Assembly (NCBI RefSeq): GCF_030463565.1
Contig: NC_134643.1
Coordinates: 15,513,606 to 15,577,605 of the forward strand
Length of the DNA stretch: 64,000 bases
Source of the DNA: Pelecanus crispus
Lineage: Eukaryota; Chordata; Aves; Pelecaniformes; Pelecanidae
Direction: 5' to 3'
Part shown: piece after piece, positions 8,508 to 61,419 of the stretch
Layout of the letters: each line of letters opens with the position of its first letter
Position numbering within the stretch: the first letter of the stretch is position 1
Made by a program: the position numbers and the translations under genes
The notes under the pieces: model-generated
Told to the model about the DNA's origin: nothing
Seen by the model: the letters and a program-made list of their open reading frames with translations, nothing else
Databases searched by the model: none

Positions 8508-11500
8508 GAGTTATACTAGTTCGTTACCAATGACCTTAGCCATTCTTGCATTTGTCTTTTTACTATGTAGATTCCTTTATTTTCCAGAAAATTGCACTGA
8601 GGTCTTCAGTCTCCTTCAGCATGGCTCACAGGCCTAATTGCAGCTGCCCAAGTCTGAGCCTAGATTTCTTTATAGTCACCCAAAGGTCACCTATTTCATC
8701 TCATATTAATGTAACATATAAATAGGGTCATCTGAACCACTTTATCCATAAGACTCCTCTCCATCAATCCTACCTAGAAAGATCCTAGAAGCTCATAGTC
8801 AGCCAAGTTTGTGTCCCCTACCTGCCTTTGCATCAAGCAGCTAGCAAACAGAGCAGCAGCGCCCAGGAGAGGGGTGGCACTGCTGCGGGGAAGCGATGCC
8901 TTCAACAACCAAGGCTTTCTAGAAAGTTATAATGTGCGCATACCTTACGGATAAGACTTCATGAAACCATAAAGCCGATCTGATCGCTGAACACTGCCAG
9001 AACGGGAGGTTCCCCCTCCTGCTGCCCTTGTGCTAGCACTCATTTGACCCCACAACAACCTGTTCACACTTGACCACTGCAAGAAAAGTGAGGGTTTTTT
9101 TCTGCTGATCCAGCTCACTGCAAGTTCAGCTGACTGCCAGTGCTGGTACCCGGGTGGACAGGGGAGGGAAGGAAGCTCACACAGACCAGGGTATGCAATC
9201 TGCTTGGTTCAATGACTGACTGATGCACTCCGTTACTGAATGGGTTGAAGTGAATTGGTAAAGACCCCTGTATGGACATCTGTTTGGAATTTACAACTCT
9301 ATTACTGAGCAATTATATTGATTCCATTTAGCATGCCCCGATTTGCAGGTTTCAATTTTAATACCACAGCACTAATGACCTGGTAAGGCAGATGGGGCAG
9401 CTCATGGCAGCCAGAGCTGGTGCTTCAGCGCTGTGCAGCATCTGAAAGGTCCTTCACCGAGCACACCTCCAGTTCTCCAACGTTTCTAAAAGCTGTTTCC
9501 CATACAAGTCATGTTCATTTAAATCACTACTAATTGCAGGATTTTTGGAGCTGAGGTCATGGATATATGGCTCTGCTTCTTTGATTTATGATACAGAATC
9601 TGTACAGCATAATACAAAATACTGCAGCCTTAGCAACATATCATTCCCCTCAAAAGCTTGTTCATAAAATTCCATTTTCTACAACATAAATGACTCCACA
9701 CAGAAATTATTAAATGAAATACAAGCCGGTGTTGCTGTTATTCACAAGACATTTTCAGTTCCCTGCTGTTGTATCTATATAATCTACCTAATGTTTGGAA
9801 AATACAGTAATTAAATGTGTCATTACTTCCCCTCATAATTCAGCATCAGATCCTACAAACCTGGAGTTATTAAAAATGTAATTAATTGCTTTCAAGTTTG
9901 GAAATTTTTATTTAATAACCCTATTTTTTAAGTCTCACAAAGTTGAAATATGATGAAAATATCACTGGTTTATGTAGCAAATACGACAAATTAACTCAGC
10001 CCCAGCTTTTAAATGGGCTTCTGTACAAAATACCCCCAGAAATCAGAGACCTTCCAAAAAAATCCCAACCTTAAATAGGATTAAGCAGTCTTAGAATAAC
10101 CACTAGTCTTATCAGCAGACTGCCATCAAATTAAGGTGGCCTGCTTTCTCTCATTTATACCCCCCTATAGACCAGGGCAGAGAATTGGGCTCTCTAGAAT
10201 CGAAAGCTGTGTACAGCTGTGACAATGACATTACTCCTGAGTGAGTTACTTGTAGTATGAGCTACAGGCCCTGAATTTACCTCCCTTAATTCTGTAAATG
10301 CGCTCCCCATTGTAAATGCTTTGAAAAGAAACCAACCAGAGAGAGAGAATAGCGACTGCTGATTTAGAACGCATAGCAAACAATTCTTTGCTTTGGCTAC
10401 AATAGGGGGTACACGAATGAATGAGTTCACTGCTTTTGACAGCGGCAGGAACCGGGCTGGCGTCCCTGTTCCCAGGGCTGTTTTCTCCACTACTTTGTAC
10501 CAGGTGCAGAAACAAAAAAGGAGAATTTCTGGCCTACGTTTCTTCAGATAACTGAAAATTCTCAGTGCTGCTATTTGTTCAAAGCTTCACACCAAGGCCA
10601 ATTATGAGAAGTTTAACAGTTTCTGTTCAGTCACCTCTAAAGAAAGGTAATAGCAGTAAGTGTAAGGCTGTGCTGTCTCAAAGGCACCAGGCAGTCTTCT
10701 ATCCCATAATCTCTACCACAGTCCTCACTAACACCCAGTAACACATCAGTGATGCGACTAACGCCGGCCAGTCTGGAACACAGCCACGTGAATTTATGAA
10801 TTCCTGTTGTTTTAAGGAGACTATTTACAACTGTAGCTTGCCCTGTGAACAAAAGCCTCCATGCTGTGGTACACAGCAGCACCTCCAGAAGCAAAGACAA
10901 GGCCATCAGTGTCTGAAGCCTCACTACCAGCATAAGGGGACCACTACTGACGGAGCCATTCCCCTGGTGACTAGCATCCACTGGAAAGGTGGAAGGACAA
11001 AAGCCATCTGAGACCAGTTTTTTTAAAAAGCATGAGAAAGAGACACAGTGAAAGGAACCAGAGTCTGAAGGCTTTGTGCCCTGATTTCCCACGCAGCGTA
11101 ATCCTGCAGAGCAACAATTACAGCCTGAATTACCAAAGCCAGGACTGGATGCAGAGAGCAGGTCTGGAAATGTTCCTCACCAAGGCTGGTAATATAATTT
11201 AGTATCAACGAAGAACTTTAAAGTACTCCAACTGCAGACTGAGCCTGTCCCCAGCTGTCTACTTTCAACAGCACAGGCTGGACAGGACCACACAATCATA
11301 GAAATACACCATTATCCACCAAGATAACCGTGTGCTTGTAGAGAAGCACAAAGGTTTTTAGCTTTAAACAGCTACTTACTCTTGAACACAATTCATAAAG
11401 CACTGGGCCACTTCAGCAATACTGTACAGTTAATGACAGATACAGCTGTACATTCACTGCAGATTTTTGGCAGCTATAGATATATCATGGGACAGGTCAT

Positions 11501-49660: not shown

Positions 49661-49846
<186 letters not shown>

Positions 49847-52973: not shown

Positions 52974-53000
52974 CCCCCCCCCCCCCCCTTTTTTTTTTTT
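52974..53000 (+). repeat. Compound C15-T12 tract
   Basis: Fifteen C followed directly by twelve T; same form and orientation as the tracts at 8483, 55487 and 57355. Confidence 0.9.
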
Positions 53001-55486: not shown

Positions 55487-55509
55487 CCCCCCCCCCCCCT
55501 TTTTTTTTT
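55487..55509 (+). repeat. Compound C13-T10 tract
   Basis: Thirteen C followed directly by ten T, same orientation as the others. Confidence 0.9.
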
Positions 55510-57063
55510 ATAGTCATGGGTTTGATGAACCTGGCAAATTCTGAGCTGCTTCTAGAAGATAATTCCAACAAACTGAATAAAATTATTTTCAAGTTGAGAA
55601 GTGGTGTAAGAGAGTAAATGAGGATTTTTTGGGGTTTATGAGGTAATAAAGGGCAAGTGTCATTGGAGATGGTTTTTATCTCATGCTAGTCAGAAGTTGT
55701 ATTTCTAGTGTTAGTACTTCACATGATTTGTGCACTCGTGTTTGCTCGCTCTCTAAAAAAATGTAGCTGGTGGCTGTTAGACATTAATGTTTTAAAAAAG
55801 ATATTTTTCTTTTGGACTTTAGAAACTAAAGTCTTCACCCAGTAGTGTTTCTAACTAGTGTTTCTTTTTAAACAATTTATCATGTAGTAACCTCAGATGG
55901 GGAGAAGCTAGTAAGAAGAAATGGGCTACCAAAAACATTAGTGGGACACTTCCAAGTAGATGTGAAAATACTGCATGTTGTTTTCAGAAAGCTACTGATT
56001 AATTGTATTCTTACAAAAAAAAAATTGCCAACAAATGTAAGTTTCTGGTATTCTTTTAAATTAGAATAGTATCAGTTCATGGCATAACAAAAAAGCCTCT
56101 ATTTAATATCTTAATGTCTGAGAAAAAACACTGATACTCACTTTAACTTAAGATTCAGAAATAGCAACTTTATTTAAAAAAATCAGTTCAGGGAATTGAG
56201 ATATTTGTGATGGCAAATAGACTTCACACATAATAAAACAAAAATTAGAAAAGGGAACCAGGCTTGATCTGTGATGCGAGTCAGAAGCCATTTCAGTTTT
56301 AGATACTGATATTTTGCCCTGCTTTTTCAATGTTTAAAAAAAAAACAAAACAAAGCAAAAAAACCCAAACAAAAACAACAGCAGAACTTTAGGTAACTCT
56401 GGGTTCGTGTGAAGTTTGTCCTAGTGTGTTTGAATCATATGGTGCAATGAAAAACCTACAAGGTGCTGACTAAAAATGTCTCGGTCATGAGAGTATGTAT
56501 ATGCTTGCATGCACACATGAATGTAGCTGCTGAGGAAAGGTAATGAAGGTATTATTTCTTGTGCTCAAGATCTTCCTATTTTAGTATTCCTTTCTGTTTC
56601 TTATCTTTCATGTTGTGGTTTAGTGCATGTAAACCATAGTTTGTGTATTAAGGCACTGCCTTTCACTACAAAACCTTCTCGCAATTTTTTATCTTTTTTT
56701 TCTTTAAGATAAATCCATAAACTGTCTTTTTTAGATAGATTTGCCCTGCATAGGATTTCTGTTTGTAGGAACAGTACTCTGCTGCCTCGAGTACTGGTTG
56801 GTATGGACAGTCGTGGGTGGTACGCTAACGCTGCCACTAGATGTCATTGCAGAATTGAATAGGATTGGTGGTAGTGCAGGGCGATACCAGTTTGCAGCTC
56901 TCTGAATTACTGCTTCTGTCTTTTGTCATAATTATGCTGAAGTGCTTTCTGCAGCTTCTCTTACAACTCTGTAGACTTGGGCATACTGATGGATGACTCC
57001 TTGACAAAGTGTGTAACACACTTTTCTGTCCCAGATTTGCAGCTTATGGCACATTTTTGTGAC

Positions 57064-57205
57064 ATGGCTCGCTCTGTGTGTGTGTGTGTGTGTTATGCAC
57101 ATAATTTTTAAAATTGTACTTAAAATAAACAGGTGTGTGTGGTTTTTTTTTTTTTTTTAAAGTGTTTGGCAGCACATTGACTGCATGGGCATCAACAGGC
57201 AGCAT
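57064..57205 (+). pseudogene. Partial duplicate of KMT2E PHD exon (coding exon 4) with its intronic flank
   Basis: This segment matches 59782-59948 nearly base for base: ATGGCTCGCTC, a TG repeat, TTATGCACA, AATTTTTAAAATTGTACTT, a T tract, the acceptor TAAAG and the first 43 exon bases. The exon portion differs at only two positions (GTT for GTC; AAC for GAC). Identity stops abruptly after CAGGCAGCAT, so the last zinc-ligand pair of the PHD finger is missing. The copy lies before coding exon 2, upstream of and out of order with the exon for the first half of the finger. Its acceptor (57163) looks usable, but the frame runs into TGA at 57215. I treat it as an exon relic or potential poison exon. 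Confidence 0.85.
57075..57092 (+). repeat. (TG)9 microsatellite in the duplicate
   Basis: Nine TG units, the counterpart of the (TG)11 at 59793-59814. Confidence 0.9.
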
Positions 57206-57354
57206 GCACTTTTTTGAGAAAAATTTTGTAACTCTGCAGAGGCATAAGTTCTCTGCCACTCTAGAAGCTTCACTTCAGATGAAAGAAGGGGGTTGGGTTT
57301 CCTTTTTTTTCCCTTGGGGTGAGGGGCAGTTGGGGCTGTGTGTTTGTTCTCACA

Positions 57355-57378
57355 CCCCCCCCCCCCCCCCCTTTTTTT
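57355..57378 (+). repeat. Compound C17-T7 tract
   Basis: Seventeen C then seven T, about 120 bp upstream of the acceptor of coding exon 2. Same form and orientation as the tracts at 8483, 52974 and 55487. Confidence 0.9.
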
Positions 57379-57466
57379 GTATACTCGTTTAAACAGGAAC
57401 AGCAGGCAATTAATTAGAAGTTGTGTAGCAAGTACCTGTAATTTATTAATATAAATTACATATTGA

Positions 57467-57718
<252 letters not shown>

Positions 57719-57914
57719 TGAGTAAGTTGACTAAAGATGGTTGATCAGAAGCAGAAAAAAACAAGAATGAGCAATGACAGAACAAAATTTTAAATTATTA
57801 CTAAAAAATAAGTCTCTGAAATTCTTTACAAAATGAATTCTTACACTTTGGCTTAAATAACCATCAGTGTGTGAATATTTAAGAGCTATAACTTCTCTTT
57901 CAACAAAAATCTAG

Positions 57915-58145
<231 letters not shown>

Positions 58146-59591
58146 TAATGAATATTAATTTAAAAGGTAAAAATTACTTTAAGCTGCACTGAAAGTAACT
58201 GTAACTAAATGGTGTTTTAATTACGTTGAGTCGTAGGAAACTTCTTTCCATCAAAACAGTGTTTGAAGGTTGTATGGCTTTCTAATAGGCAAGGTAGTTG
58301 GTTAAGGCGAGTATTTTATACTTTATTCCAGTCTGTCTTGGCTACTCGTTAATTTGTTCATGCCGTTACTTGTGCATTGTTGCTTAGTAAGGGTATATCC
58401 TTTTCCCATCTAAAAAGGATATCTTTTTGGTATTTTGTCCAAGTTGCTTGTTAGTATGGTGAAATAAAGACTTAGGGATTTGTTCTTAATCTGCATGTAC
58501 TGAGTAATAAAGCATCTTCATAAATTATGTGTATATAAATCAAGTGATCTGCAGGATGCAAAATAATCTGAAAGAAACTTCTCAAATATTGGTTTCTCTG
58601 CATGATCTTTCTGATAAGAACTCCTGGTTTTCAAAGGGCATAATTTTAAGAATTTTAGTAACTATGAAAAGACTAACCTAGATTCTTACTGGAGAAGCTG
58701 AAGTTAGATGTTTAAACTTCTGTGTTCATGCTTAAGCACCTGCTTGATCATAGTAAAATAAGTGGGTGCTATTAAATAATTGGACTTGGAAAAAACAAGC
58801 TTAGAAATTTTTAGAGCTGATACACTTAACAGGAGGAGACAAATTTCATGTTTCTGGACTTAGGATTAGCCTGTATTTTTACATTCATGTGCTTAATGAA
58901 TGCTGTTGAATTTATTAGATTTTTGTGTATTTCTAAAATTACTGTTACGGCTAATTAAAACATTAATTTGAGCTCCATTCTTCTGTCTGCTTGCGTAACA
59001 AACTTGTTAGTAAGTTTTGATAGTCCTTGATTCTGATAACTTTTTCCCTTATTTTGAAATGTATTTAGATGTTCTTTCAGCAGTGGAGCTGTAGGCAGTC
59101 ACCAGTTAGGTAGAGTCTGCTTCTTTTGAAGAAGAGATTCTCTGTCAGGTGTTGGAGAGAGTTGTGATAAATTCACAAGTGAGAAGATAACAACGATTTC
59201 GGTGCCCCAGTTCCTTCTAGCAGTGTGGGGATGAGCATAAACTGCTGTCCTAGGTCAGCCTTCAGTCTAGTAAGCAGCCTCTCTCCCGACTGTGGGAAGC
59301 AGTTAAAGCTCTTCCTGTGCTACACAACAGTGCTACCAGTCATGTGGGGTGTGTGTATAGAAACATATATTTATACGTTGTATTAAAATATATAAGCAAA
59401 TAAAACCATGTATTTGTATATGTATTTTTATATAGAAAAATAATATTTTATGTTTATAATTACAAAAGGAAATGGAATCCTTTTGTTTAAAAACAAAATT
59501 CCTCTTACTATGTAAAGTATAAGTATTGTTGTGAGGGTATTTGTCTCTATCTTGTTCTCTATTGTGATAATTTACCATTTTTTATTTCCAG

Positions 59592-59736
59592 TGTTAGAGA
59601 AAAATTTCCAAGAGGGAAAATGAGTCTAAAGAAGCAGAGAGACACCAGGAGACAGCCACAAGATTGGAATTACAGTGATCAGTGGAATAGAAAATCAGCT
59701 AGCAGAGTGGTGGCGAAGACAGTGATTGAGATGTAG
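59592..59736 (+). other. Possible cryptic/alternative terminal exon inside the PHD intron
   Basis: A good acceptor (TTTTTTATTTCCAG at 59591) precedes a purine-rich stretch. In the phase set by coding exon 3 it stays open for 47 codons, Lys/Arg-rich, to TAG at 59734. Use of it would truncate KMT2E in the middle of the PHD finger. A weak GA|GTAAAG donor follows near 59760. I know of no such isoform, and the open frame may be chance. Confidence 0.25.
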
Positions 59737-59792
59737 TTTTAGGCAATATTCAATCTGAGTAAAGATCATGATGAAAAAAGAATGGCTCGCTC

Positions 59793-59901
59793 TGTGTGTG
59801 TGTGTGTGTGTGTGTATTATGCACACAATTTTTAAAATTGTACTTAAAATAACCAGGTGGTTTTTTCTTTTTTTTTTTTTTTTCTTTTTTTTTTTTTTTT
59901 T
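59793..59901 (+). promoter_or_regulatory. (TG)11 repeat and very long T-rich tract before the PHD acceptor
   Basis: Eleven TG units (59793-59814), a 45-base spacer with TTAAAATAACC (a possible branch-point region), then about 40 T interrupted by single C up to the acceptor TAAAG|T. UG repeats bind TDP-43 and U-tracts bind PTB, U2AF and TIA1, so this layout, related to the CFTR exon 9 acceptor, may tune inclusion of the next exon. Length variation is likely between individuals. Confidence 0.6.
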
Positions 59902-59905
59902 AAAG

Positions 59906-59986
59906 TGTCTGGCAGCACATTGACTGCATGGGCATCGACAGGCAGCATATTCCTGACATATATCTGTGTGAACGTTGTCAACCAAG
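59906..59986 (+). CDS. KMT2E: KMT2E coding exon 4 (residues 138-165; second half of PHD finger)
   Basis: The acceptor is a long T tract ending TAAAG at 59905 and the donor AAG|GTGAGT starts at 59987; 81 bases, entering and leaving in phase 2, so the exon can be skipped in frame. It reads VWQHIDCMGIDRQHIPDIYL then CERCQP. The zinc ligands are His142, Cys145, Cys159 and Cys162. Trp140 corresponds to human Trp141 of the H3K4me3 aromatic pocket. Residue 156 is Ile where I recall Thr in human. The 5' part of this exon is duplicated at 57163-57205. Confidence 0.96.
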
Positions 59987-61360
59987 GTGAGTAGTTTGGT
60001 TGATTTTGAACTCTAAATAATTAGATTGAGTAGAGAATATAAAAAGAGGAGGTACTGGAACAACCAACAGATAAAACACAGACCATGTAGCATAATCCTG
60101 ACAATTCTAGTTAAAGGAGCTACATTGCTGATGCAGATGATCTTACTGGTCTCTGTTCCCTTGTTGACAGTAGCCATTGTTTCACCTCACTAGGCAGCAG
60201 GGATAAACCCTTGAAATGTTTATCAAAATAGCAGTGATTCCCGGGTCCTTTCTCAGGCTGACCAATACATAGACAATCCATTCCATATTTTGTTTCATGG
60301 CTGTCATATGTTGAGAACCCTTAACCAGCAGTGTTTTCAGGTCAGCTGCCCCACCAGTATTTCTGGTGTGTCTTTTGTTTTTATGGCTCTGTTCCGATAT
60401 GCCACAGTGCTCACTTGGAGGATTTCTTGGCCTGGAATGAGTATTTGTGTGCCCTACCTCAAACTTGTAGTCATATGACATGACGAGGAGGGCAATTTGT
60501 TCTGACTGTGGTAGTTAGATTATACCTGACTGTCATCATAGTTGTCCTGTGATGTAGAGTATAAAATGCTACCTGTTACTTACATTGCAGATTGTTAATT
60601 AAACAGTGAATAAAAGACATGTGTGTTCAGAACATTTTATTTACCATTAAATGATTCTTTTATTTCTGAGAAATAGTTTGGACCTTGTTGTCATAGAATA
60701 TTTGTTTTGTATTGTGTTGTGACAATTACAGCTACCTGAAAGGAGGTTGTAGTGAGGTGGGTGTCGGTCTCTTCTTCCAAGTAACAAGGGATAGGACAAA
60801 GGGAAATGTCCTCCAGTTGTGCCAGGGGAGGTTTAGATTGGATACTAGGAAAAATTTCTTCACCGAAAGGGCTGTCATGCACTGGAACAGGCTGCCCAGG
60901 GAAGTAGTTGAGTCCCCATCCCTGGAGGTGTTTAAAAGATGTGTAGATGTGGTGCTTAGGGACATGGTTTAGTGGTTGACTTGGCAGTGTTAGGTTAATG
61001 GTTGGACTTGATGATCTCAAAGGTCTTTTCCAACCTAAATGATTGTTTTGAAGAGTCTGCAGGAAAGTGGTTTAACGCCTGCTTATCTGTAATCTGTAGG
61101 CCAACTGTTAGTCTGTCTTCCGAGCTATCAAGTTGAGTTATGTTTTTAAGTGATTTGGATACTTGTATGTGCTTTGCATTAAAATGGAATGGAACAGTGC
61201 ATGATTGATATTTCTCTAAGTATCTAAACATTCAGCTAGTCTACTGTTTATTGTGTAATAGTCAATGGAAAATGGTAACTTTGAAAAGGTCTGTTTTAAT
61301 GCTTAGAAGTATTGATGCGTAAATGTGAAGAATGGAATAAAATCTATTTTTTAATTTCAG
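59987..61360 (+). other. KMT2E: KMT2E intron after the PHD finger
   Basis: A phase-2 intron of 1.37 kb containing a sense-oriented CR1 3' fragment (60731-61046) about 315 bp before the next exon. Nothing else is recognised. Confidence 0.85.
60731..61046 (+). mobile_element. CR1 LINE, 3' end fragment (about 316 bp)
   Basis: This is a well-preserved avian CR1 3' region: TAACAAGGGATAGGACAAAG, the GGGGAGGTTTAGATTGGATA motif, ATTTCTTCACCGAAAGG, GGAACAGGCTGCCCAGGGAA and the ending GATGATCTCAAAGGTCTTTT then CCAACCTAAATGATTG. A short remnant of the ORF2 C-terminus is still readable in 60712-60972. It is 5'-truncated, as almost all CR1 copies are, and lies in the sense orientation within a KMT2E intron. 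Few differences from the consensus I remember suggest one of the younger subfamilies. Confidence 0.93.
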
Positions 61361-61419
61361 GAGTTTAGATAAAGAAAGGGCAGTGCTGTTGCAACGAAGG
61401 AAAAGGGAAAATATGTCAG
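61361..61419 (+). CDS. KMT2E: KMT2E coding exon 5 (residues 165-184)
   Basis: The acceptor TTAATTTCAG ends at 61360 and the donor TCAG|GTGAGT starts at 61420; 59 bases, leaving in phase 1. The translation SLDKERAVLLQRRKRENMS follows the PHD finger and matches KMT2E. It is a basic linker (RRKRE) that may help nuclear targeting. The protein should continue with an acidic Asp/Ser/Thr/Glu segment, but that exon lies beyond the window. The gene is therefore partial here: about 10% of the roughly 1,850-residue protein. Confidence 0.95.

What the first reader, a model, noticed from the sequence alone, without database searches (positions are those of the whole stretch)
57064..57205. Out-of-order partial duplication of the KMT2E PHD-finger exon
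A 142-base segment matches 59782-59948, including intronic TG repeat, T tract, acceptor and the first 43 exon bases. Only about two exon mismatches and a few intronic ones are visible, so it looks recent on an avian timescale. The copy lies before coding exons 2 and 3, so it is not a simple adjacent tandem exon duplication. I know of no description of it in KMT2E.
Basis: seen in the sequence. Interest (0 to 1): 0.8.

Follow-up and report, generated by a model that had tools for sequence, protein, structure and literature searches.

The report
Intronic copy of part of KMT2E exon
A short stretch of the KMT2E gene, spanning the end of one intron and half of the next exon, was copied about 2.7 kb upstream into an earlier intron, most likely during DNA break repair; it is a well-formed example of a known kind of event and probably does nothing.

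Summary
57064-57205 (142 bp) copies 59782-59948 (167 bp) in the same orientation, 2,718 bp upstream: intron end, 3' splice site and the first 43 bases of KMT2E coding exon 4. It is the only non-self match in the 64-kb window at E<=1e-6, and only these two places match in the 1.31-Gb assembly. The copy lies in intron 1, 293 bp before coding exon 2. Outside the simple repeats 4 of 103 hand-chosen columns differ.

The anatomy fits proximal repair-mediated duplications (Pace et al. 2009, PMC2671141): donor under 5 kb away, typical length, no poly(A). A 14-bp target-site-duplication-like flank (12/14 matches) was reached at 9 of 9,072 control sites. Best reading: break repair or template switching copied nearby DNA into the intron, perhaps 3-26 million years ago (recalled rate). 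That class is published, chicken included, and covers partial exons: a new member of a known kind.

The copy keeps the splice acceptor, but spliced after exon 1 it would meet an in-frame stop at 57215-57217: at most a poison exon. No RNA evidence was available, and no other bird genome could be searched, so age and phylogenetic spread are untested.

The parts
57064..57205 (+). acceptor: inserted copy (142 bp) in KMT2E intron 1
   Evidence: only two places in the assembly
59782..59948 (+). donor: end of intron 3 plus first 43 bases of coding exon 4 (167 bp)
57049..57062 (+). left copy of target-site-duplication-like 14-mer; followed by one extra C (57063)
   Evidence: 12/14 match to 57206-57219; reached at 9 of 9072 control sites and in 6 of 20000 shuffles; coordinates
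57206..57219 (+). right copy of the target-site-duplication-like 14-mer, directly abutting the insert
57163..57205 (+). copied partial exon, 2 mismatches to the donor exon, preceded by the copied AAAG acceptor
57163..57318 (+). hypothetical pseudoexon (156 nt) using the copied acceptor and a GGG|GTGAGG donor candidate; in-frame TGA at 57215-57217
   Evidence: splice weights recalled, approximate; no RNA evidence
49775..49845 (+). KMT2E coding exon 1 (from ATG), phase 2
57499..57610 (+). KMT2E coding exon 2
57915..58144 (+). KMT2E coding exon 3
59906..59986 (+). KMT2E coding exon 4 (second part of the PHD finger), source of the copied exon bases
61361..61419 (+). KMT2E coding exon 5

Best explanation
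A proximal repair-mediated duplication. A break or stalled fork in KMT2E intron 1 was healed by copying about 167 nt of DNA from 2.7 kb downstream on the same strand (synthesis-dependent strand annealing or microhomology-type template switching). Synthesis then rejoined the original site about 14 nt back, which left the short flanking repeat and a one-base filler. Shown: two copies, same orientation, unrelated flanks, donor in the intact gene, no poly(A), imperfect 14-bp flanking repeat. Inferred: the repair pathway, direction of synthesis and age (about 10 My, roughly 3-26 My, using a recalled neutral rate near 2e-9 per site per year; constraint on the donor exon would make this an underestimate). 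The copy is most likely functionally inert intron sequence; it leaves the coding exons read here intact. If its inherited splice acceptor were used after exon 1, the message would stop after 18 codons, so it could only act as a poison exon.
For: Alignment and uniqueness. Distance of 2,718 bp and lengths of 142/167 bp match published proximal duplications (824 of 1,136 within 5 kb; acceptor mean 162, median 147 bp). No poly(A) at either end, as in 39 of 39 inspected proximal cases. Target-site-duplication-like 14-mer, reached at 9 of 9072 positions. Partial exon/intron donors are listed (4 in human), and chicken has the class (6 counted in TE DNA). The donor encodes D at the D/N difference, as PDB 2lv9 (MLL5) does, so that change is in the copy; the other three differences are not polarised.
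Against: No orthologous empty site could be examined, so the breakpoints, and any deletion at the target, are inferred from one genome. No clear contiguous microhomology is visible at either junction (sequences printed). A target-site duplication appears in only 6 of the 39 proximal cases, and the combination filler plus TSD alone in 0 of 39 (5 of 12 interchromosomal cases without poly(A)). The TSD scoring was set after the repeat had been seen by eye.
Confidence: 0.8

Rival explanations
1. Reverse transcription: a fragment of unspliced KMT2E pre-mRNA was reverse transcribed by a retroelement enzyme in trans and inserted back into the same gene.
For: Sense orientation and the 14-bp target-site-duplication-like flank; RNA-templated insertions are described (templated sequence insertions).
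Against: No poly(A) at the 3' end; intron retained; donor only 2.7 kb away, where 39 of 39 inspected human cases lacked poly(A).
Confidence: 0.1
2. Two-step event: tandem duplication of 57206-59948 (about 2.7 kb), then deletion of most of the first copy, leaving only its end.
For: Gives the same order of segments without a jump (reasoned from the coordinates).
Against: Needs two events and predicts no flanking repeat, yet 12/14 matching bases flank the copy at the junctions (9 of 9072 control sites).
Confidence: 0.06
3. Assembly or haplotype artefact.
For: Reads could not be inspected; the segment carries TG and T tracts, which are error-prone.
Against: 4 substitutions in 103 non-repeat columns exceed what one molecule misplaced twice would show; the flanks are unique and only two places exist in the assembly.
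Confidence: 0.04

Closest known systems
Repair-mediated duplications (RDs), Pace et al. 2009, PLoS Genet, PMC2671141 (abstract, passages, sections 6, 7, 12, 14 seen)
   Same: Short (acceptor mean 162 bp), donor under 5 kb away, no poly(A), can include partial exons and splice sites; counted in chicken.
   Different: RDs were found inside transposable elements, with the empty site from relatives or a TE consensus. Here the acceptor is plain intron and no empty site is available; the flank repeat is in the minority class, and no clear microhomology is seen.
Doublets (Thomas et al. 2004; seen only as cited in PMC2671141; details recalled)
   Same: Short same-strand local duplications with kilobase spacing.
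   Different: Doublets were defined by exact 25-100 bp matches (recalled); this copy is longer and has diverged.
Templated sequence insertions, class 1 and class 2 (Onozawa and Aplan 2016, PMC5110952; parts 1-3 of 4 of the text seen)
   Same: Short copied patch with an intact donor; class 1 shows a target-site duplication.
   Different: Donors there are distant loci; class 1 typically has poly(A) and an L1 site, class 2 has no target-site duplication.
MMBIR templated insertions (Osia et al. 2021, PMC8421209; passages seen)
   Same: Polymerase template switching to a nearby template.
   Different: Those the paper's software scores are inverted copies of templates within 100 bp; here the copy is direct and 2.7 kb from its donor.

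Membership tests
Proximal repair-mediated duplication | Insert of at least 50 bp found at exactly one other place | tested here: met
Proximal repair-mediated duplication | Donor within 5 kb but more than 50 bp away (not tandem) | tested here: met
   start-to-start 2,718 bp
Proximal repair-mediated duplication | No poly(A)/poly(T) tail of 5 bp or more at an end | tested here: met
   sequence; the T tract is internal and present in the donor; a T6 run lies four bases outside the right end, within the flanking 14-mer
Proximal repair-mediated duplication | Breakpoint signs: microhomology, filler, deletion or target-site duplication | tested here: inconclusive
   14-bp imperfect target-site duplication and 1-nt filler; no clear contiguous microhomology; deletion untestable without an empty site
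Proximal repair-mediated duplication | Empty site in a relative or in a TE consensus | not testable with these tools
   no other bird genome held (one search says the genome has no relatives here)
Class 1 templated sequence insertion | Non-templated poly(A) with polyadenylation signal | tested here: not met
   no A run at either end of the copy (by eye)
Class 2 templated sequence insertion | No target-site duplication | tested here: inconclusive
   imperfect 14-bp repeat present
Functional alternative exon | Open frame through the exon when spliced after exon 1 | tested here: not met
   in-frame TGA at 57215-57217

The most novel reading that the evidence does not exclude
The copied acceptor is used in vivo with the donor candidate at 57318, making a lineage-specific 156-nt poison exon that tunes KMT2E dosage (KMT2E is dosage-sensitive in humans; recalled), so that one break-repair copy of a gene's own splice site created a regulatory exon.
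Probability: 0.04. Interest if true: 0.55.

Novelty: new member of a known kind. Interest (0 to 1): 0.22.

Why it matters
It is a clear, probably avian, example of local copying that placed a splice acceptor and half of a domain-coding exon in another intron of the same gene, which shows how cryptic exons can be seeded. It changes no known concept, and no effect on KMT2E is shown.

Tried and rejected
Tandem exon duplication: rejected, because the copy is separated from its donor by exons 2 and 3 and ends mid-exon. Transposable element: rejected, because the query with flanks gives only two places in the assembly. Mutually exclusive PHD exon: rejected, because only 43 of 81 exon bases are present and a stop follows. 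Background control: 264 kb (a 144-kb contiguous stretch including the window, compared with itself, plus 12 tiles of 10 kb, each compared with itself) gave 28 hits. Of these, 21 belong to segments with 6 or more hits in the pool (CR1-like, name recalled), 5 to one tandem array, and 2 to low-copy pairs: this one and an older pair in L021 (69%). The sample is too small to give a rate. Not obtained: KMT2E introns of other birds, RNA-seq, raw reads, species name.

Full report
What is there. The segment 57064-57205 aligns over its full length with 59782-59948 in direct orientation, 2,718 bp apart by their starts. The filtered self-comparison of the 64-kb window returns this pair and nothing else at E<=1e-6. 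In the assembly that holds the window (1.31 Gb, 310 contigs; the window is at C1:15513606-15577605) the query 57000-57260 matches only itself and the donor (that search skips simple repeats).

The gene. The peptide read from the exons matches the solved MLL5/KMT2E PHD finger structures 2lv9 and 4l58 over the PHD region. Five coding exons join into one open frame: 49775-49845, 57499-57610, 57915-58144, 59906-59986 and 61361-61419. Exons beyond these were not examined. The donor is the end of intron 3 and the first 43 of 81 bases of exon 4. The copy lies in intron 1, 293 bp before exon 2.

Divergence. BLAST counts 8 mismatches and 2 gaps over 167 columns. Outside the TG and T tracts, in columns that I picked by hand, 4 of 103 differ (3.9%, 95% CI 1.1-9.6%). 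A possible further G/A difference at the edge of the TG run was left out with the tracts. Two of the four are exonic: GTC/GTT (silent) and GAC/AAC (D/N). The donor has D, like MLL5, so the D>N change is in the copy, where a CpG became CpA; the silent and intronic differences are not polarised. The T tract is 41 nt in the donor and 16 in the copy (counted by eye); a 17-bp tandem repeat in the donor tract could account for part of this. With a recalled avian neutral rate near 2e-9 per site per year, 3.9% between two copies is about 10 My, roughly 3-26 My, and more if constraint slowed the donor exon. That is older than ordinary polymorphism, so the copy is probably fixed; this is an inference.

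Junctions. Immediately left of the copy is GCACATTTTTGTGA plus one C; immediately right is GCACTTTTTTGAGA, 12 of 14 matching. A search with the same freedoms at 9,072 positions of the window reached this score 9 times, and base shuffles reached it 6 times in 20,000. The scoring was written after I had seen the repeat, so the p of about 0.001 is somewhat generous. There is no poly(A), and no clear contiguous microhomology at either junction.

Mechanism. Pace et al. 2009 (PMC2671141; abstract, passages and sections 6, 7, 12 and 14 read) describe 824 human duplications with the donor within 5 kb, acceptor mean 162 and median 147 bp. All 39 inspected proximal ones lacked poly(A), and they carried microhomology, filler, deletion or target-site duplication in various combinations. 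Their Table 2 lists 4 partial exon/intron donors, and 6 cases were counted in chicken TE DNA. The present case fits in distance, length, uniqueness and lack of a tail. It is less typical at the junctions: a target-site duplication occurs in 6 of those 39, and filler plus target-site duplication alone in 0 of 39. The best-supported account is local capture during break repair or fork restart. The flanking repeat would arise when synthesis rejoins the target slightly upstream, or from filling of staggered ends (inference). Reverse transcription of pre-mRNA, duplication with later deletion, and assembly error are less likely rivals.

Function. The copy retains the AAAG acceptor. Exon 1 ends in phase 2, as exon 3 does before exon 4, so the copied bases would be read in the PHD frame and then meet TGA at 57215-57217. 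The only donor candidate scoring above 2 within 400 nt, at 57318, would close a 156-nt pseudoexon. It scores 4.08, against 2.83, 2.07 and 3.5 for the real exon 1-3 donors and 8.37 and 8.54 for exons 4 and 5, with approximate recalled weights. If used it would be a poison exon. Nothing here shows that it is used, and the default reading is inert intron sequence.

Background. In 264 kb of the genome (one 144-kb stretch compared with itself, and 12 separate 10-kb tiles each compared with itself) the 28 hits were 21 in multi-copy segments, 5 in one tandem array, and 2 low-copy pairs: this one and an older pair in L021. The sample is too small to give a rate.

Literature. Searches for KMT2E with pseudoexon (0 papers), with bird and intron (10 papers, listing only; one concerns an MLL5 splice variant as a cell receptor, not read; none is on this by title and abstract start), and with duplication and avian (1 paper, an autism gene list, listing only) showed no report. 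'Repair-mediated duplication' with bird gave 2 papers, one of them Pace et al.. The library holds open-licence PMC papers only.

Noticed in passing
L021:5965-6102 and L021:8061-8199: A second low-copy direct pair, 2.1 kb apart, about 69% identical, with no obvious shared open frame: possibly an older duplication of the same kind or an unrecognised old repeat.
   Followed up: partly
window 60727-61044: CR1-like element (name recalled) in KMT2E intron 4; relatives at several places in the 264-kb pool. The genome-wide search did not complete.
   Followed up: partly
window 52974-53000, 55487-55509, 57355-57378: Three poly(C)-poly(T) tracts of similar make-up within KMT2E intron 1 (read).
   Followed up: no
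window 59861-59901: The donor's T tract before exon 4 contains a 17-bp tandem repeat that the copy lacks, so the tract of the real acceptor grew after the duplication or the copy's tract shrank.
   Followed up: partly
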